A DNA stretch of 64,000 bases from an uncultured Lachnospiraceae bacterium (GTDB taxonomy: Bacteria; Bacillota; Clostridia; Lachnospirales; Lachnospiraceae). The notes under the pieces were generated by a model, which saw only the letters and a list, made by a program, of their open reading frames with translations, did no database searches and was not told the DNA's origin. The stretch is taken from the NCBI GenBank assembly GCA_947632555.1, contig CANRPU010000004.1, forward strand, positions 1 to 64,000. Reading direction: 5' to 3'. Made by a program: the position numbers and the translations under genes. Below, one piece after another: positions 2,220-49,998 of the stretch; the stretch's first letter is position 1, and the number at the start of each line of letters is the position of its first letter.

Positions 2220-5200
2220 ATGATTCTGATTCATGTATTTGCCGTAATAACCGTTCTGGGACTTTTCTATGGGATTTCCCGGATACGTTCTTCATCCGGC
2301 TTTTCCTGCCGCCGGGATGTGGTCTTCGCCGTGCTGTTCGGCGGGCTCCTGATCCGATGCCTGTTCGCCATTTTTTATCAGCCGCCTTCGGAAGACACGT
2401 ATTACTTCGCGGATATGACCTATCTGGCTTTCGGCAACAAGCTTTCCGAATTTTACGCTTCTACCGTAGCCGAGTCCTTTTCGCCCGGCATTACCTATAT
2501 ATTGTGGATACTGGGCGGTATCTTTACCCTGACCGGCATTCCCTATCTGTCCGGCGGATTCCTTCTCCTATTAAAACTGCCCGCCATTCTCTGTGACCTG
2601 GCGGCCGGTTACCTTATTTACAAAGCCTGCCTCAAAGTCAGCACGGAGAGCCGGGCTCTGCTGTTCGCGTCCCTGTACCTGTTCAATCCGGTCATTCTGC
2701 TGAACTCATCTGTCTGGGGACAGATGGATTCCCTGTACGGGCTGGCGGCTGCCGCCATGTGTATTTTCCTGACCGAGCGGAAGCTGACCCAGGCTACCGC
2801 CGCTTTTGGCGTGGGACTTTTCTTTTCTCCGCTGATGATCTGGTTCCTCCCCCTCCTGCTGATCGCGCTGATCGACGAGATCCGTCTGGAAGGATTTTCT
2901 CCCCGCAGAGTAGGGTATCATATAAGCGCCGCGCTCTGTACGCTCGGCACGCTGCTCTTCTGCAGCGTTCCCCTGGACCTGAGCCAGGTTCTTTCCCGCT
3001 ATGCCAGCCAGCTGTTCCGGCCGGGCTACGCGGCGGTCAACGCCTTTAACCTCTGGGGGCTTTTCGGACAGAACTGGTCTTCCCAGGACACTGTCCCGCT
3101 TCTGCTGTCCATCACCCAGATCGGCATCATCATCTCCCTGCTGATCGCGGCGGCCTCCGTCTTTCTGTACTTTAAACTCTCCACCGTTTCAGGCCGTTAC
3201 TTCCTGATAGGGGCGTTTATTACCGTATCCATGTTCCTGTTTTCCGTGGGCGTGCATGAGCGTTATCTTTATCCCGCCATTCTGCTCCTGCTCTTCGCTT
3301 ACCTGGAACACTCCTTCCGGGAGCTGTATGTATGCTATGTGGGCTTTTCCCTGCTGCATTTATACAATCTGGGATATTCCCTGTTCCTTTACGACTACCA
3401 GAATTACAGCAGGAAATCCTTTGTGATCCTGTTCTTCTCCGCGGCCTTCCTGCTGATGGGCGTGTTCTTTTACAGACTGTTCTTCCGTCTGCTGCGCGCT
3501 CCCTCCGCCGCGGCCTCCGTCCCCAGATTTGATTTTTATTCCTTCTCTGACGGGGATCCCGCTGTTTCCGGCCCGGCCGGCGTTTCCTATAAGCCCGCGC
3601 CTTCGGCCAAAAAGATGGCGTTTACTCTGATGGATCTTATCCTTATCCTTGTCATCACTCTGGGGTACAGCTTTTTCGCCCTGCGGGATCTGGGGTACCG
3701 TTACGCGCCCCAGACGGAATACCTGATGCATCAGGGCGATTCCATCGAACTGGAAATGAAAGAGGGCGAGCTGCCCATCCGCCTTTACTGGTACCTGGGC
3801 AACTATCACAACCGGGAATTTTCCCTGGAATATAAGAACGCGCCGGATGCGGAATGGACCACAGCTTCCGGCTATGAAACCCTCACCATGTCCGATGTCT
3901 TCAAGTGGGCTTACAAGGAACTGCCTTCCGGTTCCCGGTTCCTGAAACTGACCTGCCGCAGCGATGTGGCATCCGTCATGGAGCTGGTCCTGACGGACGC
4001 GAACGGAAATGTCTATATGCCGGTCAACGCTCCCGATTACACAGCGCTCTTTGACGAAGTGGATATGTTCACTCCCGAACTCAGTTTCCGTAACGGCACA
4101 TACTTTGACGAGATCTACCACGCCAGAACGGCTTATGAATTTGTACACGGACTGCCCGCCTATGAAACCACCCATCCCCCCCTGGGCAAGATCATCATGT
4201 CCCTGGGGATCCGCCTTTTCGGCATGACGCCCTTCGGCTGGCGTATCATGGGCACGCTTCTGGGCATCCTGATGCTGCCCATCCTTTACCTGATCGGACG
4301 GAACCTGACCCGAAGCCGTGTGCTTGGCGGCTTTGCCTGCCTGCTTTTCGCTTTTGATTTTATGCATTTCACCCAGACCAGGATCGCCACCATTGACGTA
4401 TTCGTGACCTTTTTCATCCTGCTCATGTACTATTTCATGTACAACTACTGCCGTATGAGCTTTTACGATACGCCCCTGTATAAAACCCTTCTGCCTCTGG
4501 GTGCCTGCGGGATTTCCATGGGGCTTGGCATCGCCTGCAAATGGACCGGCGTATACGCGGGCGCGGGACTCGCGGTGCTCTTTTTCCATACTCTGTACCG
4601 CCGTTACCGGGAATACCGCTACGCCAAGGCCGCGCCCCACGATTCCAGCAACGGCATTGCCCACGCCGACGTGGTGTCCCGCTTCGCGCCGTACACGAAA
4701 GCCACCATCGCTTTCTGCGTACTGTTTTTTGTAGTGATCCCCTTCGTCATCTACCTTCTCTCCTACCTGCCCTTCCAAACCGGCGGCGGAGAAGGACTGT
4801 TCGCGCGCATGTGGAATAACCAGTCCCACATGTTCCGCTACCATTCCCAGCTGAAAGCGGAGCACTACTACGGTTCCCCCTGGTATCAATGGCCCACTAT
4901 GATAAAGCCTATTTTCTACTATTCGGGCACCGTGGACATGACGCTGCGCCAGGGTATCAGCGCTTTCGGCAATCCCCTGGTATGGTGGGTCGGCATTCCC
5001 GCTTTCTTCTATATGCTCTACCTTGTGATCCGGCAGAAGGACAGGACCGCGTTCTGGCTCTGCATCAGTTACCTTGCCCAGTACCTGCCCTGGTGTCTGG
5101 TCAGCAGGCTGACTTTTATCTACCACTACTTCCCCAGCGTGCCTTTTGTGGTACTGATGATCATGTACGCCGCCTTTAAACTGAAAAGCCGGATACCGCA

Positions 5201-5354
5201 GAAGCAGTTCTACATAGCGCTGGGCATCTATTCCGCGGGCGCCGTGGGACTGTTCCTGCTGTTCTATCCTGTACTGGCCGGTCAGACCGTCAGTCTGGAC
5301 TTTGTAAGCCAATATCTGCGTTGGATGGATTCCTGGGTATTGGTACTGAAATAA
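2220..5354 (+). CDS. Large GT-C membrane glycosyltransferase, GT87-like plus PMT-like fusion
   Basis: A predicted polyprenyl-phosphate-sugar dependent glycosyltransferase of the membrane. The start is ATG 2220 after AAAGGAGGGG; an upstream in-frame TTG (2103) lacks a ribosome site. The first ~460 residues are multi-pass and resemble GT87-type mannosyltransferases. After a linker and a soluble beta-rich stretch (about 500-610), a protein O-mannosyltransferase (PMT) domain follows, with the FDEIYHAR motif (Asp630-Glu631) in the first outer loop, HPPLGK near 652 and a C-terminal 4-TM block with the WCLVSRLTFIYHYFPS motif. At 1044 residues it is about twice the usual length, since two catalytic-type modules are joined. 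The sugar donor and acceptor are unknown; surface glycan or glycoprotein synthesis is likely given the neighbouring sortase and surface protein. Confidence 0.85.
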   Translation: MILIHVFAVITVLGLFYGISRIRSSSGFSCRRDVVFAVLFGGLLIRCLFAIFYQPPSEDTYYFADMTYLAFGNKLSEFYASTVAESFSPGITYILWILGGIFTLTGIPYLSGGFLLLLKLPAILCDLAAGYLIYKACLKVSTESRALLFASLYLFNPVILLNSSVWGQMDSLYGLAAAAMCIFLTERKLTQATAAFGVGLFFSPLMIWFLPLLLIALIDEIRLEGFSPRRVGYHISAALCTLGTLLFCSVPLDLSQVLSRYASQLFRPGYAAVNAFNLWGLFGQNWSSQDTVPLLLSITQIGIIISLLIAAASVFLYFKLSTVSGRYFLIGAFITVSMFLFSVGVHERYLYPAILLLLFAYLEHSFRELYVCYVGFSLLHLYNLGYSLFLYDYQNYSRKSFVILFFSAAFLLMGVFFYRLFFRLLRAPSAAASVPRFDFYSFSDGDPAVSGPAGVSYKPAPSAKKMAFTLMDLILILVITLGYSFFALRDLGYRYAPQTEYLMHQGDSIELEMKEGELPIRLYWYLGNYHNREFSLEYKNAPDAEWTTASGYETLTMSDVFKWAYKELPSGSRFLKLTCRSDVASVMELVLTDANGNVYMPVNAPDYTALFDEVDMFTPELSFRNGTYFDEIYHARTAYEFVHGLPAYETTHPPLGKIIMSLGIRLFGMTPFGWRIMGTLLGILMLPILYLIGRNLTRSRVLGGFACLLFAFDFMHFTQTRIATIDVFVTFFILLMYYFMYNYCRMSFYDTPLYKTLLPLGACGISMGLGIACKWTGVYAGAGLAVLFFHTLYRRYREYRYAKAAPHDSSNGIAHADVVSRFAPYTKATIAFCVLFFVVIPFVIYLLSYLPFQTGGGEGLFARMWNNQSHMFRYHSQLKAEHYYGSPWYQWPTMIKPIFYYSGTVDMTLRQGISAFGNPLVWWVGIPAFFYMLYLVIRQKDRTAFWLCISYLAQYLPWCLVSRLTFIYHYFPSVPFVVLMIMYAAFKLKSRIPQKQFYIALGIYSAGAVGLFLLFYPVLAGQTVSLDFVSQYLRWMDSWVLVLK

Positions 5355-5393
5355 CCTGTTAAAGCAGAAGATTTTTCTGGGAAAGGAATATGT

Positions 5394-6266
5394 ATGAAAA
5401 AGATTAAACTTATAGCGGACTCTACCTGCGATCTGTCACCGGAATTACTGGAGCGTTACGATATCAGCATCATTCCTCTGTGCATTGTCATGGGGGAGGC
5501 AAGTTATTACGACGGTCTGGACACCACCCCCGAAGAGATCTACCGGTGGGCCGATGCCAATAAGACCACGCCGAAAACCGCCGCGGTCACCTTTGAAAAA
5601 TCGGTGGAAATCCTGCAGCCTTTTATCGAGGAAGAACGGGATATCCTCTTCTTTGGTATCTCTTCCCAGATGAGCACGACCTGCAATGTCATCCGCATGC
5701 TGCCTGAAACCACGGGAGATGAACGTTACGGCAGGATCCGCGTGATCGATTCCCTGAATCTTTCCACCGGGATCGGCCTTCAGGTGCTCTATGCCGCCAG
5801 ACTGGCAGAAGCCGGAAAGAGCGCGGATGAAATAGAGGAGCTTGTCAACAGCCGCAGGGACAGCGTCCGGGCCAGCTTTGTGGTGGATACCCTGACTTAT
5901 CTGGCCAGGGGAGGCCGCTGCAGCGCCGTTACCGCCCTGCTGGCCAATACTCTGAAAGTAAAGCCCAAGATTGCGGTCACCAACGGCGCCATGGACGTTG
6001 CCAGAAAATATCGGGGCACTCTGAAATTCGCCATTTTAAAATACGCGGAGGATCTGAAACCGCTGCTGCTTTCGGCAGACAACTCCTGTGTGTTCATTAC
6101 CCATTCCGGCTGCTCGCAGGAAATCGTGGATGCGGTCTGGGCCTACCTGGAGGAGCTCCATCATTTCAAGGCCATTTACGTCACCCGCGCCGGCGGCGTG
6201 ATCTCCAGCCACTGCGGTCCCGGTACTCTGGGCATTTTGTTCTACGACGGAAACAAAGATGTTTAG
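5394..6266 (+). CDS. DegV family fatty-acid-binding protein
   Basis: 290 residues, the normal DegV length. The N-terminal ADSTCDLSPELL and the later RGGRCSA region match the family, whose members hold a fatty acid in a cleft between two alpha/beta domains; some (FakB) hand fatty acids to the kinase FakA. No FakA gene is seen here, so a FakB role is only possible. The gene lies 39 bp after the glycosyltransferase and may share its transcript. It ends 4 bp before a strong terminator shared with the converging metK. Confidence 0.9.
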   Translation: MKKIKLIADSTCDLSPELLERYDISIIPLCIVMGEASYYDGLDTTPEEIYRWADANKTTPKTAAVTFEKSVEILQPFIEEERDILFFGISSQMSTTCNVIRMLPETTGDERYGRIRVIDSLNLSTGIGLQVLYAARLAEAGKSADEIEELVNSRRDSVRASFVVDTLTYLARGGRCSAVTALLANTLKVKPKIAVTNGAMDVARKYRGTLKFAILKYAEDLKPLLLSADNSCVFITHSGCSQEIVDAVWAYLEELHHFKAIYVTRAGGVISSHCGPGTLGILFYDGNKDV

Positions 6267-6270
6267 ATCA

Positions 6271-6299
6271 AAAGCGGGCGTCCTTAGGACGCCCGCTTT
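6271..6299. terminator. Bidirectional intrinsic terminator between degV and metK
   Basis: A perfect 13-bp stem (AAAGCGGGCGTCC and its complement) with a 3-nt loop; the A/T arms give a U-run in both directions, serving both converging genes. Confidence 0.95.
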
Positions 6300-6326
6300 T
6301 TTGGTTCTTTTATCAAACGGCTTTTC

Positions 6327-7532
6327 TTACAGATATTTTCTCAAAAGTTCCGCTTTATCCAGTTTTTCCCAGGGCAGATCCAGGTCGTTTCTGCCAAAGT
6401 GCCCGTATGCCGCGGTCTGCCTGTAGATAGGCCGGCGCAGGTCCAGCATTTTGATGATGCCGGCCGGGCGCAGATCAAAATTCTCCCTGATGATACGCAC
6501 CAGCTCCAGCTCGGAAAGCTTACCCGTGCCGAAGGTATCCACCCGCACGGAGGTAGGCTGCGCTACCCCGATAGCGTAAGAAAGCTGGATCTCACATCTC
6601 TCGGCCAGTCCGGCGGCAACGATATTCTTGGCCACATAGCGCGCCGCGTACGCCGCCGACCTGTCCACTTTGGTGCAGTCCTTTCCGGAAAAAGCGCCGC
6701 CGCCGTGACGGGCGTAGCCGCCGTATGTATCCACGATGATCTTTCTTCCGGTCAGTCCCGCATCCCCGTGGGGTCCGCCGATCACAAAACGGCCGGTGGG
6801 ATTGATAAAGTATTTCGTGTCCGCGTCCAGAAGCTCTTTCGGCAGTACCGGCTCAAAAACGTATTTCTGAATATCCTGATGGATCTGCTCCTGCGTCACA
6901 TCGGGATCGTGCTGGGTAGAAAGCACCACCGCCTCCAGACGGATGGGTCTGCCCGCCTCGTCGTACTGTACGGACACCTGGCTTTTGCCGTCCGGCCGCA
7001 GATAAGGCAGCGTGCCGTCCTTGCGTACCTTGGTCAGCTGGCGTACCAGCTTGTGCGCCAGGGAAATGGGATAAGGCATGTATTCCTCTGTTTCATTGGT
7101 GGCGTAACCGAACATCATACCCTGATCGCCGGCGCCCACAGCTTCCAGCTCTTCATCGGACATCCCGCTTTCCGTTCCCTGCTGTTTCGCTTCCAGCGCT
7201 TTATCCACGCCCATGGCAATATCGGAGGACTGCTCGTCAATGGCCACCATGACCGCGCAGGTGTTTCCGTCAAAGCCGACTTCGGAACTGTTATAGCCGA
7301 TCTCCGTCACCGTGTCCCTGACGATTTTCTGAAAATCAATATGCGCCTTGGTGGTGATTTCTCCCGTTACCAGTACAAATCCCGTGCAGCTGGCGGTTTC
7401 ACACGCCACCCTGCTCATGGGATCCTGCTCCATCAAAGCATCCAAAATGGCGTCGGACACCGCGTCGCACATTTTATCCGGATGCCCCTCCGTAACGGAT
7501 TCGGAGGTAAACAACAATTTCTCTTTTTCCAT
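6327..7532 (-). CDS. metK: S-adenosylmethionine synthetase
   Basis: Makes SAM from methionine and ATP in the cytoplasm. The 401-residue protein has the normal length and family landmarks: [10 protein letters not shown] at the N-terminus, the [12 protein letters not shown] signature and the glycine-rich GGGAFSGKD loop. ATG 7532 follows an AGAGAGGAAG ribosome site. Transcription passes through a SAM-I riboswitch with a terminator, so the gene is expected to be switched off when SAM is plentiful. It ends at the terminator shared with degV. Confidence 0.98.
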
Positions 7533-41724: not shown

Positions 41725-43200
41725 TTAACCCAGTAAGGAAAGTACTCCCTGATTCGCCTGGTTAGCCTGCGCCAGCATAGCCTGACCTGCCTGTGCCAGG
41801 ATCTGGCCGTTGGAGTATCTAACCATCTCGTTCGCCATATCGGTATCACGGATGGAAGCTTCAGCGCTGGTGGTGTTCTCCACAACGTTATCCAGGTTGC
41901 TGATGGTGTGCTCCAGTCTGTTCTGAACAGCGCCCAATGCGGAACGCTGCGTGGAAACCTTCTGGATCGCTTCCTTGATGGTTTCAATGGATGCCCTGGC
42001 GTTGGTGTCATCCGCTCCGTCTACCTTCAGGCCGTTGATGCCAAGCCCCTTAGCGCTCATGGCGTCCAGAGCAATGGTGATCTGGTTGTTGGAAGTAGCG
42101 TCGGCGCCCACATGGAGCGTCAGCAGCAGATCGCCTACCAGATCCTGTTTGCCCACTACATAATCCGCGCTCAAGTCAGTTTCATTTCCAAGCGCATCGT
42201 ATACCTTGGGCGCATCCGCTCTGGGAGAAGAGGTCACTGTACCATCTGTGCCGGTAGTGGAAGAGTAGTAGCTGTCCAGCGCGTTCTTGGGAATCGCGTT
42301 TCCGTCCCTGTCATAATACTGGAAGGATTCTCCCTCGCCAAAACCTGCTTCCGCTTTCACTGCTGCAACAGTTTCACTTCCTGTTACTTGTGCAGCCTGA
42401 GTTTCACCAAGGTTATCATTAACCAGCGTAATAGTAGCAATCAAGTTACCCTGACGGTCTTTTACCTCAAAATCTTTATTAGTGGCACCTTCCGCCTTAG
42501 CAGTCACTACATATTTATCTGTTCCATTGAGAGAAACAGAAGCCTTATTTACATATTCATTTTCCTTCTCTCCTGTACTGCTATAGGTAATATTGATACC
42601 CTGGTCCCTGATAAGCCTCGCTACCTCATTCTGATCAGCGCCCTTTGCCGTTTTTTTGAATTCAACCGTAACTCCTTGTAAACCCGTAGTTTTATTATCA
42701 ATTTTGCCCATCTCGACCGAAGCTGTTTCAGTTTCTGCTAAATCATAGGAATACGTATACTCCTTGGTCGCGTCCCTATCACCTTTCAGCAGATAGGTTT
42801 CGTTGAACTTGGTGGTTTCCGCTACACGGTCGATCTCGGTAGTCAGCTGATCGATCTCGTTCTGAATGTAGCTTCTGTCGTTCTCGGAGTTGGTACCGTT
42901 GGCTGCCTTTACCGCCAGCTCGTTCATTCTCTGCAGCATATCCTGCACTTCGCCCAGCGCGCCTTCCGCGGTCTGCACTGCGGAAATACCGTCCTGCGCG
43001 TTCGCGGAAGCCTGTGTCAGGCCGCGGATCTGCTTTCTCATCTTTTCACTGATGGAAAGGCCTGCCGCATCGTCCGCCGCGCGGTTGATCTTGTATCCGG
43101 AAGAAAGCTTCTCCGTGGATTTCGCCTGTGCCTTGGTGTTTACGCCCAGCATTCTGTTAGAGTTCATTGCCGCAAGGTTGTGTTGTACTATCATTGCCAT
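41725..43200 (-). CDS. hag: Flagellin
   Basis: The filament protein, exported by the flagellar type III system; 491 residues. The conserved N-terminal part (MIVQHNLAAMNSNRML, SSGYKINRAADDAAGLSISEKM) and C-terminal part (NRLEHTISNLDNVVENTTSAEASIRDTDMA, LAQANQ.NQGVLSLLG) form the D0/D1 domains; residues about 150-380 are the variable outer region. ATG 43200 follows AAGGAGG. csrA lies 149 bp upstream on the same strand. I see no sigma-28 promoter directly before the gene, so transcription probably starts upstream of csrA and depends on the invertible segment (inference). A strong terminator follows. Confidence 0.97.
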   Translation of the reverse strand: MAMIVQHNLAAMNSNRMLGVNTKAQAKSTEKLSSGYKINRAADDAAGLSISEKMRKQIRGLTQASANAQDGISAVQTAEGALGEVQDMLQRMNELAVKAANGTNSENDRSYIQNEIDQLTTEIDRVAETTKFNETYLLKGDRDATKEYTYSYDLAETETASVEMGKIDNKTTGLQGVTVEFKKTAKGADQNEVARLIRDQGINITYSSTGEKENEYVNKASVSLNGTDKYVVTAKAEGATNKDFEVKDRQGNLIATITLVNDNLGETQAAQVTGSETVAAVKAEAGFGEGESFQYYDRDGNAIPKNALDSYYSSTTGTDGTVTSSPRADAPKVYDALGNETDLSADYVVGKQDLVGDLLLTLHVGADATSNNQITIALDAMSAKGLGINGLKVDGADDTNARASIETIKEAIQKVSTQRSALGAVQNRLEHTISNLDNVVENTTSAEASIRDTDMANEMVRYSNGQILAQAGQAMLAQANQANQGVLSLLG

Positions 43201-43349
43201 AATTGTTACCTCCTTGTATTTCTGCGCAAATCCGTTTGCGTCAGTTGTTTGGTTTTTGGTTTTTATAGTAACCGAGGGCTTTCCGCTCCATATACGGGCC
43301 CTGCATACTTCCCTTCCGGCCTTCGGTTATTATCTTTTTCGCGGGCCGC

Positions 43350-43625
43350 TTACGGCTCCAGATTCCCGTGCGTGATAATGACGCGGGGGTTCTTTTTCTT
43401 TAAGTACCTGGGATCCGTCTGCGGTTCCGCGTAATACCTGGGCAGTTTTGCCTTTTCTTCCGGATCCGTGATCTTGTTTTCCAGAACCGTGCTCCTTACG
43501 ATATTGACATCTTTGGGCGCGTCCACCATAATTCTTAAATGGTTGTGAGTGCCGCCCAGAAACACGATCTTGATGTTTTCTCCGATCATCAGATACTCTT
43601 CGGTGCTCACTGTCAATCTCAACAT
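43350..43625 (-). CDS. csrA: CsrA-family translational regulator with C-terminal extension
   Basis: An RNA-binding regulator that blocks ribosome access at GGA-rich leaders; in Bacillus it controls flagellin. 91 residues from ATG 43625, preceded by AAGGAGG; the longer frame is not a gene. The MIGENIKIVFLGG and the later LRIMVDAPKDVNIVRSTVLE agree with the CsrA beta strands, including the Arg of the VxRxE-like end. The first strand (VSTEEY in place of TRKxGE) is unusual, and about 35 residues extend past the normal end. It lies between the invertible segment and flagellin, whose transcript it should share and whose leader it may bind. Confidence 0.85.
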   Translation of the reverse strand: MLRLTVSTEEYLMIGENIKIVFLGGTHNHLRIMVDAPKDVNIVRSTVLENKITDPEEKAKLPRYYAEPQTDPRYLKKKNPRVIITHGNLEP

Positions 43626-43678: not shown

Positions 43679-43705
43679 TGCAACATTCTTTCATAAAATG
43701 TTGCA
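43679..43705 (+). repeat. Left 27-bp inverted repeat (recombination site)
   Basis: Half-sites TGCAACATT and AATGTTGCA separated by nine bases (CTTTCATAA). The whole is the exact reverse complement of 44385-44411. The internal dyad with an asymmetric spacer is the layout of a tyrosine recombinase site. Outside it, to the left, no U-run follows for a leftward transcript. Confidence 0.95.
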
Positions 43706-43740
43706 TTTTTGACTGCGGTTTATTTTGGAAAGGAGAATTT

Positions 43741-44319
43741 ATGAGTACGACACAACCGATCAAAGACATGAAACAACTGAAGCTGTTCAAAGAGTATTAT
43801 CAATTAAAAAAGCCCAACGCCAGAAACTATCTTCTGATCATCATGGGCTTAAATTCCGCTCTGCGGATATCCGATATCCTGCATCTTACCTGCGGGGACG
43901 TATTTGATTTCCGCCGGAAGGAATGGCGGACACATATCACGGTACGGGAAAAGAAAACCGGAAAGGAAAACTGTATCTACATGAACAGGGAGATCATCGA
44001 AGCGCTGGAGGAAAGCGCGGAGCTGCTCCTGCGCGGGCCGGGGGATTTTCTGTTTTTCAGCCATATGCATCCGGACGAGCCGTTAAGCCGCAGCCAGGCT
44101 TTCCGGCTGGTAAAGGAAGCGGCCTTCTACGCGGGTCTGGACAGCGGCGTCAGCTGCCACTCCCTGCGCAAGACCTTTGGTTATCACGCATGGAAGCAGG
44201 GTACGCCGCCGGCGCTGCTGATGAATATTTATAATCATTCGGCCTATCAGATCACCAAACGGTACCTGGGGATCGAGCAGGACGAAAAGGACGCGGTCTT
44301 CCGTGAGATCATTTTGTAA
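43741..44319 (+). CDS. Small tyrosine recombinase (FimB/FimE-sized), probable inversion enzyme
   Basis: 192 residues from ATG 43741 with GAAAGGAG upstream; a longer frame reads back through the repeat. It is a catalytic domain with no separate core-binding or arm-binding domain. Active residues: Arg42 (SALRISDI), Lys72 (REKKTGK), His140 and Arg143 (CHSLRKTF), His166 (IYNHSA) and Tyr175 (TKRYLGI). All are present. The size and lack of an N-terminal domain match FimB/FimE, which flip the fim promoter. It lies wholly inside the two inverted repeats, so it would move with the segment it inverts. Its own promoter is not clear. Confidence 0.93.
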   Translation: MSTTQPIKDMKQLKLFKEYYQLKKPNARNYLLIIMGLNSALRISDILHLTCGDVFDFRRKEWRTHITVREKKTGKENCIYMNREIIEALEESAELLLRGPGDFLFFSHMHPDEPLSRSQAFRLVKEAAFYAGLDSGVSCHSLRKTFGYHAWKQGTPPALLMNIYNHSAYQITKRYLGIEQDEKDAVFREIIL

Positions 44320-44338
44320 AAAAAATTTCTTTTTGCCC

Positions 44339-44365
44339 TAAAGTATTTTTCTTCTCCGCCGATAA
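44339..44365 (+). promoter_or_regulatory. Sigma-28 (flagellar) promoter inside the invertible segment
   Basis: TAAAGTAT (44339-44346), 11 bases, GCCGATAA (44358-44365). This is one base from the enterobacterial sigma-28 consensus TAAAGTTT-N11-GCCGATAA, and fits sigma-D of Bacillus (TAAA-N15-GCCGATAT). It faces right, away from flagellin, in this sequence. It begins 19 bp after the recombinase stop and ends 19 bp before the right repeat. Confidence 0.9.
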
Positions 44366-44380
44366 ATATATCAGATAACA

Positions 44381-44420
44381 AAAGTGCAACATTTTATGAA
44401 AGAATGTTGCACTTTTTATT
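44381..44420 (+). terminator. Right repeat with flanks: terminator-like hairpin
   Basis: The dyad at 44385-44411 is extended by AAAAG/CTTTT pairs and followed by CTTTTTATT, so a rightward transcript from the sigma-28 promoter should end here. In reverse it has TTTTGTT, so it can also end the DUF554 transcript. The left repeat has no such flank outside. Confidence 0.7.
44385..44411 (-). repeat. Right 27-bp inverted repeat (recombination site)
   Basis: Exact reverse complement of 43679-43705. Half-sites TGCAACATT and AATGTTGCA; spacer TTATGAAAG. Confidence 0.95.
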
Positions 44421-48038: not shown

Positions 48039-48737
48039 CTAAACGCTGAAATCTACTTTTTTGCCGCTTTCATTGGGATCCTTAGGATCGACGGCGCTCC
48101 AGTCCACTTTTCTGACTTTTTCCAGAAGCTCTTCCAGACTGTCCGCCCAGACGGTAGCACTCTTTACGCGCTCCTCTTTTTCCGCCTTCTCTCTTTTTTC
48201 GGCGCGTTTTTCCTCTCCCGCTTTCTCTATGCGCTCTCTCTGTTTTTCACTGCTCTTTTCCAGCTCCGCGAAGAAAGTCGTGCTGCCGTCCTGGTTAAAG
48301 GAGATCCCCACACGGGTCACTTCGCCGCCGTTTCCGTCTTTGCCGAAAGCGGACTCAAACCCGAACTGCTGATTGATCTGCGAGGACATGCGCACCGCGC
48401 TCTCTACCCTGCTCATATATTCCTGTTCGTACTTTTCATCGGACGCCATCTTTTCCAGCTCGTCGCAGGAAAACAGGACGGAAAATTCTTTGGTGCCCCG
48501 TGAGAGGATTTCCTTCGCTTCCTCCCCGTCCTCAAAATCCGCCGCCATAAAATCCATGTTGCCGTAGGTTTTACGCAGCTTTTCCAAAAGCTTCTGCGCC
48601 TTCTCGGAAAGTTTAGGCCGCGCGGCGTTTTCCGCCCGTCCGGCGGACCTGCTTCCCGCCGCTTTCCTCTCGCTTCCGGTTCTTCCCACATATCCTTCCG
48701 TATGGGCGCCGTAAGTACTGCCGATCTCCATTGCCAT
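48039..48737 (-). CDS. DUF6033-like protein
   Basis: 232 residues. The middle (LSEKAQKLLEKLRKTYGNMDFMAADFED) and the FSVLFSCDELEKMASDEKYEQEYM segment recall DUF6033 proteins of Lachnospiraceae; the name is from memory. A charged coiled coil (about 155-200) precedes a short C-terminal part. Ribosome site AAGGAGG. Function unknown. It probably shares an operon with the coiled-coil gene that follows. Confidence 0.7.
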   Translation of the reverse strand: MAMEIGSTYGAHTEGYVGRTGSERKAAGSRSAGRAENAARPKLSEKAQKLLEKLRKTYGNMDFMAADFEDGEEAKEILSRGTKEFSVLFSCDELEKMASDEKYEQEYMSRVESAVRMSSQINQQFGFESAFGKDGNGGEVTRVGISFNQDGSTTFFAELEKSSEKQRERIEKAGEEKRAEKREKAEKEERVKSATVWADSLEELLEKVRKVDWSAVDPKDPNESGKKVDFSV

Positions 48738-48816
48738 AGTATCATCCTCCTTGAATTTATTCGACAGAAATCCGTTTCTTATCTATTTCTATATATCGGC
48801 AGATACACGTGATTCT

Positions 48817-49998
48817 TTAACGCTTTTGTCCTGTGTCCCGCAGCCACGCTTCCACGCCTTTCCGAAAACGTTCCAGGCCGTCCTGCAGAAGACAGCGGGG
48901 ACACGCCGCGTTCCAGCGCAGAAAGCGTTTCCCCGTCCCACCGTAGCGGGCGCCGTCGGACAGATAAAGCCCCGTTTCCTTTCGCAAAAACTCCTGAAGC
49001 GCCCCGCTGTCCTCGCAGATATCCCCGCAATCCAGCCAGAGCAGGTAGGTAGCCTCCGGGACCCCGGCCTTCACCCCAGGTACGTTCCGGCGCAGAAAGT
49101 CCACCGTCGTTTTTTTGTTTTCGGACAGATATTGCCGCAGTTCCTCCAGCCACGCTTCTCCCCGGGTAAAAGCCGCCACGGCCGCCGTTATGGCAAAGGC
49201 GTTGGGTTCCGCCACTTCGTCGGTATTCAGTCCTCTTTGGGCCTTATGGCGCAGCGTTTCATTGGGTACGCAGACAGCGGCGGTCTGCAGTCCCGCCAGA
49301 TTAAAGGTCTTGGTAGGGGCGATACAGGTCACGCTGTTCTCCCGGCATTCCTCGCTGGCAGAAGCGAAAGGGATATACTCTTTTCCGGGCTCCGTCAGAT
49401 CGCAGTGGATCTCATCCGACACCACCAGCACATGATGTTTCGCGGCCAGATGTCCGATCCGTTCCAGTGTCGGTCTATCCCAGATCTTCCCCACCGGATT
49501 GTGGGGATTGCACAGTATCATCATGGTAGTCTGCGGCCTGGCCAGTTTTTCCTCCAGATCCACAAAATCCACGGAATAAACGCCGTTTTCATCACGCAGC
49601 GGGCTTTCCAGCACATGCCTGCCGTTGTTGATAATGGAATGGAAGAAGATATCGTAGACCGGCGTCTGTACCAGCACGTTTTCCCCCACCGTAGTCATTT
49701 TCCGCACAAGGGAAGACAGCGCGGGTACTACGCCCGTGCAGAAGACCAGCCACTCTTTTTCCATGTGAAAGCCATGCCGCCTCTCCCACCAGCCCTGTAT
49801 GGCTCTATACCATTCTTCCGGCACGACGGAATAGCCGAACACTCCGTGCTCCAGCCGTTTTCTCATGGCTTCCAGGATTTCCGGCGCCGTCCGAAAATCC
49901 ATATCGGCCACCCACATGGGAAGAGTTCCCTCCGCCGTATCCCACTTCAGGGAACCGCTCCCTTTCCGGTTTACCGGCGTATCAAAATCATACTGCAT
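48817..49998 (-). CDS. MalY/PatB-type PLP-dependent aminotransferase or C-S lyase
   Basis: 393 residues, fold type I. The WVADMDFRTAPEI start, the CNPHNPVGK and SDEIHCDL motifs and the PLP lysine in IAPTKTFNLAGLQ match MalY/PatB cystathionine beta-lyases. It probably breaks C-S bonds of cysteine conjugates, or acts as an aminotransferase. The DUF3737 gene precedes it by 23 bp. Confidence 0.92.
   Translation of the reverse strand: MQYDFDTPVNRKGSGSLKWDTAEGTLPMWVADMDFRTAPEILEAMRKRLEHGVFGYSVVPEEWYRAIQGWWERRHGFHMEKEWLVFCTGVVPALSSLVRKMTTVGENVLVQTPVYDIFFHSIINNGRHVLESPLRDENGVYSVDFVDLEEKLARPQTTMMILCNPHNPVGKIWDRPTLERIGHLAAKHHVLVVSDEIHCDLTEPGKEYIPFASASEECRENSVTCIAPTKTFNLAGLQTAAVCVPNETLRHKAQRGLNTDEVAEPNAFAITAAVAAFTRGEAWLEELRQYLSENKKTTVDFLRRNVPGVKAGVPEATYLLWLDCGDICEDSGALQEFLRKETGLYLSDGARYGGTGKRFLRWNAACPRCLLQDGLERFRKGVEAWLRDTGQKR

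What the first reader, a model, noticed from the sequence alone, without database searches (positions are those of the whole stretch)
43679..44411. Apparent invertible promoter switch for csrA-flagellin with a built-in tyrosine recombinase
Seen: perfect 27-bp inverted repeats enclose a 192-residue tyrosine recombinase gene and a near-consensus sigma-28 promoter; csrA and flagellin read away from the left repeat on the minus strand. Known: FimB/FimE flip promoters with similar-sized enzymes; Hin in Salmonella sits inside its invertible segment beside a promoter for flagellin plus a flagellin repressor. Inferred: this segment flips, giving flagellin ON (promoter toward csrA) and OFF (as seen here). 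It would be a Hin-like layout reached with a tyrosine recombinase and CsrA instead of FljA. I know of no described system with this combination, but cannot search.
Basis: partly seen in the sequence, partly recalled or inferred. Interest (0 to 1): 0.95.

Follow-up and report, generated by a model that had tools for sequence, protein, structure and literature searches.

The report
Self-flipping flagellin switch with private CsrA
Beside a flagellin gene in a likely gut bacterium sits a 0.7-kb stretch of DNA that carries a recombinase gene and a flagellar-type promoter sequence between two mirror-image sites; related species carry it in either direction, so it likely flips to turn on or off that flagellin together with a CsrA-like protein predicted to control the flagellin's own message.

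Summary
In detail: two perfect 27-bp inverted sites (43679-43705, 44385-44411) enclose a 192-aa tyrosine recombinase gene and the best sigma-28 match of the 64 kb, which points away from csrA and flagellin (OFF). The design recurs in Lachnospiraceae: of 177 distinct recombinase loci, 119 lie beside a csrA that reads away, and 102 of these show a sigma-28 promoter in the element (96 OFF, 6 ON). The six ON loci are scattered on the recombinase tree; against OFF relatives their flanks align directly and the segment inverted, with breakpoints at the sites. Site spacers match within loci, not between loci. In 88 of 88 OFF loci tested no other sigma-28 site faces csrA-flagellin. The csrA is a distinct paralog (R44 kept, R6 lost). 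Most switch flagellin leaders hold a covarying GGA-loop hairpin, whose loop (mostly ACGGAU) differs from that of the few fixed flagellins examined (mostly AGGGAA). That suggests a private CsrA-RNA pair rather than a FljA-like repressor. Inversion within one strain, and expression, are not shown. I rate it a new variant of a known kind, the invertible-promoter phase-variation switch.

The parts
43679..43705 (.). Left (csrA-side) recombination site, 9-9-9 palindrome with spacer CTTTCATAA
44385..44411 (.). Right (far) recombination site, exact reverse complement of the left site
43679..44411 (.). Predicted invertible segment, 733 bp with its sites
   Evidence: inversion seen between related species
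43741..44319 (+). Tyrosine recombinase, 192 aa, catalytic domain only; R42, K72, H140, R143, H166, Y175 invariant in the window's protein and 23 relatives
44339..44365 (+). Sigma-28-type promoter TAAAGTATTTTTCTTCTCCGCCGATAA, now pointing away from csrA
43350..43625 (-). csrA paralog of the switch, 91 aa (R44 kept, R6 replaced by V, R at position 3)
43224..43241 (-). Flagellin leader hairpin CGCAAA-CGGA-TTTGCG (6-base loop reading ACGGAU), predicted CsrA site; the Shine-Dalgarno AAGGAGG lies just downstream
41725..43200 (-). Switched flagellin, 491 aa

Best explanation
The segment at 43679-44411 is likely a self-contained invertible promoter switch: its own tyrosine recombinase is predicted to flip it between two inverted 27-bp sites, so that the sigma-28-type promoter inside would point either at csrA-flagellin (ON) or away from it (OFF, the orientation in this assembly). 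Shown: the sites, the enzyme's family and catalytic residues, the promoter sequence, the genes and the present orientation; both orientations across related species with breakpoints at the sites; spacers that match within loci; no second sigma-28 site for the genes in the OFF loci tested. Inferred: that flipping occurs within a strain, that ON cells make this flagellin, and that the csrA paralog of the operon binds the hairpin and ribosome-binding site of its own flagellin message to set its level. A second flagellin elsewhere in the genome, with a fixed sigma-28 promoter, would keep the cell flagellated in OFF.
For: Anatomy and uniqueness. Conservation: 119 of 177 distinct recombinase loci have a csrA reading away within 1 kb; of the 119, 108 also have a flagellin and 96 a site pair, and 102 have a sigma-28 promoter in the element, 96 OFF and 6 ON (shuffled flanks reach the threshold in 2 of 120). 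The -10 to site gap is 18-19 bp in 50 of 90 and 13-24 in 84 of 90. Both orientations: six ON loci (L045, L066, L074, L088, L104, L106) against OFF relatives, flanks aligned directly and segment inverted; at least 6 changes of state on the tree. Sites picked by half-site motif alone, found on both flanks in 65 of 119 loci: spacers agree at 8 or 9 of 9 positions in the inverted sense in 57 of 65; mean (better of two senses) 8.28 within, 4.5 between loci; 0 of 2000 permutations as high. No other sigma-28 site (score 10 or more) toward csrA-flagellin in 88 of 88 OFF loci. Catalytic residues invariant in 24 of 24 aligned; fold model pLDDT 86, best match XerA. csrA paralog: R44 in 119 of 119. Hairpin: 93 of 108 leaders against 5.85 expected; all 7 pairs covary in 50 leaders that I chose.
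Against: No strain is shown in both orientations: the closest ON/OFF pairs are different species (recombinase 85-87% identical). No reads and no expression data. ON is rare (6 of 102), so rare flipping or locked copies are possible. 17 of 119 csrA loci lack a sigma-28 site by the ungapped profile, though five of them show one with a 12-bp spacer (L023, L064, L105, L110, L126). 46 recombinases over 200 bits had neither csrA nor flagellin in the stretch fetched; of six sampled, five lie beside unrelated genes, so the enzyme is not always a flagellin switch. A weak sigma-70-like match (9 of 12) on the csrA-flagellin strand lies beyond the right site (44445-44418). What drives the recombinase gene is unknown. 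CsrA binding is untested, loss of R6 could mean altered or lost RNA binding, and the window's leader as a whole folds no better than shuffles (z -1.14). The sigma-28 factor itself was not looked for in this genome.
Confidence: 0.88

Rival explanations
1. FljA-like cross-repression (a variant of the same switch that differs in the role of csrA): the flip turns on the switch flagellin and a CsrA paralog that represses translation of the other, fixed flagellin, so the filament protein is exchanged as in Salmonella.
For: The genome has a second flagellin (C4:141581-142405, 274 aa) with its own sigma-28 promoter and a GGA-loop hairpin and SD in its leader; CsrA represses hag translation in B. subtilis (PMC7652899, passages).
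Against: Leader loops mostly differ: ACGGAU/AAGGAU in 69 of 85 switch leaders with a 6-base loop, AGGGAA/AAGGAA in 11 of 13 leaders classed as fixed (5 of the 13 come from one genome); in this genome ACGGAU versus AGGGAA. The canonical csrA-fliW pair of this genome lies near the fixed flagellin.
Confidence: 0.25
2. The element is a mobile integrase cassette that happened to land beside csrA-flagellin in two directions, not a switch.
For: The recombinase resembles small integrases of phages and Gram-positive plasmids (phrog_216), and some relatives lie beside unrelated genes.
Against: Sites are inverted, not direct; spacers match within loci; a sigma-28 promoter at a narrow distance and no other sigma-28 site for the operon; flanks collinear in ON/OFF pairs.
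Confidence: 0.04
3. A relic switch now locked OFF in this strain, flagellin silent.
For: 96 of 102 loci are OFF.
Against: Here the sites are perfect and the recombinase, csrA and flagellin frames are intact; decay is seen elsewhere, in Roseburia faecis M72.
Confidence: 0.07

Closest known systems
Hin / fljB-fljA switch of Salmonella (features recalled; segment size 966 bp from a passage of PMC5903667)
   Same: Recombinase gene inside the invertible segment; promoter at one end drives a flagellin and an RNA-level regulator; a second flagellin elsewhere.
   Different: Tyrosine, not serine, recombinase; the regulator gene lies before the flagellin and is a CsrA paralog, with a predicted CsrA hairpin in its own flagellin leader.
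fim switch with FimB/FimE of E. coli (features recalled)
   Same: Tyrosine recombinases of about 200 aa that flip a promoter.
   Different: There the enzymes lie outside a segment of about 0.3 kb; here the enzyme is inside. NCBIfam tyrosine-type DNA invertase models score 40.4 and 26.4 bits against cut-offs of 222 and 221 (that these stand for FimE and FimB is recalled).
Clostridioides difficile flagellar switch, RecV (PMC7446863, abstract and passages)
   Same: Tyrosine recombinase (as named in PMC5903667), inverted repeats, flagellar phase variation in Clostridia.
   Different: 154 bp, no promoter inside, lies in the 5' UTR of flgB, acts through Rho after initiation.
Putative fimbrial inverton of Providencia stuartii (PMC5903667, section 13)
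   Same: Large segment (844 bp) that encloses a recombinase gene.
   Different: Fimbriae, 14-bp imperfect repeats; no CsrA or flagellin reported there.
FliW-CsrA-hag homeostasis of Bacillus subtilis (PMC7652899, passages)
   Same: CsrA represses flagellin translation by occluding the SD.
   Different: Not described as phase variable; here a second, divergent csrA travels with the switch.
Gut invertons found by PhaseFinder (Jiang 2019, recalled, not held; PMC11892184 and PMC10939037, term searches)
   Same: Invertible promoters of gut bacteria.
   Different: The terms flagell, motility, Lachnospir and Roseburia do not occur in the main text of the two papers searched; the 2019 paper could not be checked.

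Membership tests
Invertible-promoter phase-variation switch | Inverted recombinase sites around a promoter | tested here: met
Invertible-promoter phase-variation switch | Segment found in both orientations with breakpoints at the sites | tested here: met
   Between related species only; not within one strain
Invertible-promoter phase-variation switch | Orientation decides expression of the adjacent gene | not testable with these tools
   Indirect only: no other sigma-28 site in 88 of 88 OFF loci tested
Hin-type flagellar switch | Serine recombinase (invertase) | tested here: not met
   Tyrosine recombinase: (PF00589), catalytic residues
Hin-type flagellar switch | Recombinase gene inside the segment beside a promoter for flagellin | tested here: met
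Hin-type flagellar switch | Co-expressed repressor of the other flagellin | tested here: inconclusive
   Leader loops of switch and fixed flagellins mostly differ
FimB/FimE invertases | Match to the curated family models | tested here: not met
   40.4 and 26.4 bits against cut-offs 222 and 221
C. difficile RecV flagellar switch | Promoterless short segment in the flgB 5' UTR | tested here: not met
   733 bp, contains a promoter sequence and the recombinase gene, upstream of csrA-flagellin:
CsrA family | Pfam CsrA above cut-off | tested here: met
   63 bits against 27
CsrA family | NCBIfam CsrA equivalog above cut-off | tested here: not met
   39.7 against 73 and 33.5 against 70.1
CsrA family | RNA-binding residues L4, R44 and R6 (recalled) | tested here: inconclusive
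   R44 in 119 of 119, L4 in 91 of 119, R6 in 0 of 119, R or K at position 3 in 106 of 119

The most novel reading that the evidence does not exclude
A phase-variable flagellin cassette of gut Lachnospiraceae that brings its own orthogonal CsrA: a paralog that lost R6 and gained a basic residue at position 3 reads ACGGAU-loop hairpins in its own flagellin leader, while the canonical CsrA-FliW pair reads AGGGAA loops of the fixed flagellin, so two insulated CsrA-RNA circuits run in one cell and one of them is switched by DNA inversion. (Odds lowered from 0.40 to 0.35 on recheck, because 5 of the 13 fixed leaders come from one genome.)
Probability: 0.35. Interest if true: 0.9.

Novelty: new variant of a known kind. 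Interest (0 to 1): 0.8.

Why it matters
Antibodies against gut-microbiota flagellins are raised in Crohn's disease (PMC11285207, search listing only); that Lachnospiraceae flagellins are prominent among the targets is recalled. A heritable DNA switch for such flagellins, OFF in 96 of 102 loci, would offer a readable cause of flagellin silence in the gut that could be scored in existing metagenomes. A 2013 survey could find no sigma-28 or sigma-43 promoter for three Eubacterium/Roseburia flagellin genes (PMC3720852, passage); a switch in the OFF state is one thing to check there. It would also be an independent arrival at the Hin layout with an unrelated enzyme and an RNA-binding regulator, and would provide a natural pair of CsrA paralogs with different predicted RNA targets.

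Tried and rejected
Recombinase in viral contigs: one pattern hit, no relative. Antisense sigma-70-like promoter inside csrA (43504-43532, 11 of 12) as driver of the recombinase: not conserved, 6 of 100 tested csrA genes reach 11; dropped. Low-score sigma-28 calls that gave extra ON loci (L021, L051, L128, L142, L146, L167) were no longer ON in the profile scan. FljA-like role: made a rival after the loop comparison. Mobile cassette reading: rejected, see rivals. A test for contig ends piling up at the switch was considered but not run, because repeated flagellin genes would confound it. Literature: eight searches aimed at such a switch listed no title or abstract start that describes it; two more were on CsrA-FliW and on flagellin in Crohn's disease. 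PMC12806557, PMC11892184, PMC10939037 and PMC11868660 were searched for terms. PMC3720852 was searched for terms: recombinase, integrase and 'phase varia' 0, 'invert' 1 in a passage not shown. Jiang 2019 is not held. Absence from print is therefore not shown.

Full report
What is there. The window holds two perfect 27-bp inverted sites, 43679-43705 and 44385-44411, each made of two 9-bp inverted halves around a 9-bp spacer. Between them lie a 192-residue tyrosine recombinase (43741-44319, +) and a sigma-28-type promoter (44339-44365, +), the best such match in 64 kb. To the left, on the minus strand, lie csrA (43350-43625) and flagellin (41725-43200). The promoter points right, away from them. 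The site pattern occurs nowhere else in the held genome, and the next recombinases found in it score 26.9 and 23.2 bits against 434.8.

It is a conserved module. Of 177 distinct recombinase loci, 119 have a csrA reading away within 1 kb, 5 have only a flagellin and 53 have neither in the stretch fetched; the set was drawn by similarity to this recombinase, so these are not population rates. Of the 119, 108 also have a flagellin and 96 a site pair; the median site-to-site length is 802 bp.

Orientation. 102 of the 119 have a sigma-28 promoter in the element (profile score 12 or more; shuffled flanks reach this in 2 of 120). In layout A (as in the window, promoter and recombinase in the same direction) 87 are OFF and 4 ON; in layout B (divergent) 9 are OFF and 2 ON. 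Layout B sites seen look like GTAACAC...GTGTTAC rather than TGCAAC...GTTGCA. The -10 to site gap is 18-19 bp in 50 of 90. The six ON loci lie singly on a recombinase tree of 102 rows and need at least 6 changes; layout needs one. Pairwise alignments of ON loci with OFF relatives show flanks in direct and the segment in inverted orientation, for example L088 with L073, L104 with L095, L045 with L007. The csrA-side site tends to carry the weaker outer half, in ON and OFF members of the pairs alike (weaker in 46 loci, the far one in 5, equal in 39; equal in the window). That is what one expects if the crossover lies in the spacer and outer halves stay with the flanks.

Site co-evolution. Taking sites by half-site motif alone, 65 of 119 loci gave one on both flanks. 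In 57 of the 65 the two spacers agree at 8 or 9 of 9 positions in the inverted sense; the mean (better of two senses) is 8.28 within a locus and 4.5 between loci, 0 of 2000 permutations reaching the former. Tyrosine recombinases need identical spacers but tolerate changed spacer sequence (established knowledge), so this is a mark of use.

OFF means off, as far as sequence can tell. In 88 of 88 OFF loci with a flagellin, no other sigma-28 site (score 10 or more) faces csrA-flagellin between recombinase and flagellin. Housekeeping promoters cannot be excluded. In the window none of the four sigma-70-like matches (2.2 expected) lies on the csrA-flagellin strand between recombinase and flagellin; one weak match on that strand lies beyond the right site.

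The enzyme. R42, K72, H140-x-x-R143, H166 and Y175 are invariant in the window's protein and 23 relatives. The best of five models (pLDDT 86, the others 71-75) matches XerA and other tyrosine recombinases. Its nearest family models are phage integrase ones (phrog_216), relatives under 60% identity occur on phages and plasmids, and it is below the cut-off of the tyrosine-type DNA invertase models.

The csrA. All 119 switch CsrA proteins keep R44; none has R6 (V, L, I or M instead), and 106 have R or K at position 3. The canonical CsrA of the same genome, next to fliW at C4:146 kb, has R6 and R44. All 18 genomes examined have a csrA of 85 bits or more, and 16 of the 18 have further csrA genes.

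The RNA. 93 of 108 switch flagellin leaders hold a GGA-loop hairpin of 5 or more pairs just upstream of the SD, against 5.85 expected from single-base shuffles. In 50 leaders, chosen among those with a hairpin, all 7 pairs show changes on both sides, 65 such cells against 20.7 in shuffles, and the slid controls fall below 50% paired. The window's leader as a whole does not fold better than shuffles (z -1.14), though the hairpin is in its best fold. CsrA of B. subtilis represses hag translation at the SD, and R44 is critical for RNA binding (PMC7652899, passages). Switch leaders mostly have the loop ACGGAU or AAGGAU (69 of 85 with a 6-base loop; 23 more had none by this test), leaders classed as fixed AGGGAA or AAGGAA (11 of 13, from 7 genomes; the two others, from two further genomes, are AAGGAU, one of them an either/or switch); last base p 4e-6, second base p 4e-7. 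The rows are related by descent and five fixed ones are copies in one genome, so these p values overstate the case. I read this as a private CsrA-flagellin pair; it is an inference.

A second form. In L010 and L017 (the same locus as L084) the recombinase, sites and promoter lie between two divergent flagellins without csrA, so flipping would exchange one flagellin for the other.

What it works like and what it is. It works like the Hin switch in layout and like fim in enzyme class, but fails a membership test of each. It differs from the C. difficile flagellar switch, which has no promoter in the segment (PMC7446863, passages). The nearest layout in print that I saw is the putative fimbrial inverton of Providencia stuartii that encloses a recombinase (PMC5903667, section 13).

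Limits. No read data, no same-strain pair, no expression. ON loci are 6 of 102, and assemblies show one state only. The recombinase's own promoter is unknown.

Noticed in passing
L010 (rec 1501-2070) and L017/L084: Variant with two divergent flagellins around the segment and no csrA: predicted either/or flagellin exchange.
   Followed up: partly
L266 (MT837916.1), 4838-6441: A human faecal scaffold deposited as 'Bacteriophage sp.' carries recombinase, csrA and flagellin with a sigma-28 site in the layout-B OFF arrangement; it is probably bacterial DNA.
   Followed up: partly
G512 (L177/L104, L178/L100, L181): One genome with four switch recombinases: one ON, two OFF, one without a called promoter.
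   Followed up: no
G046 C2:241-274 kb: Array of 11 flagellin genes with three switch recombinases, all three OFF.
   Followed up: no
L092, Roseburia faecis M72: Apparently decayed switch: recombinase, sites and a weak sigma-28 promoter kept, a weak csrA match beside it, no flagellin found in the stretch.
   Followed up: partly
window 48793-48819 (-): Second good sigma-28 site (19.9) upstream of ORF 48039-48737, a possible further motility gene.
   Followed up: no
csrA-side sites of 90 loci: Outer half-site next to csrA is the weaker one in 46 loci, the far one in 5, equal in 39; reason unknown, perhaps to avoid a hairpin in the ON transcript.
   Followed up: partly
L056, L072, L087, L093, L071: Recombinase relatives without csrA or flagellin nearby, beside genes such as an ABC transporter, a tRNA synthetase or metabolic enzymes; their sites and targets are unknown.
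   Followed up: partly
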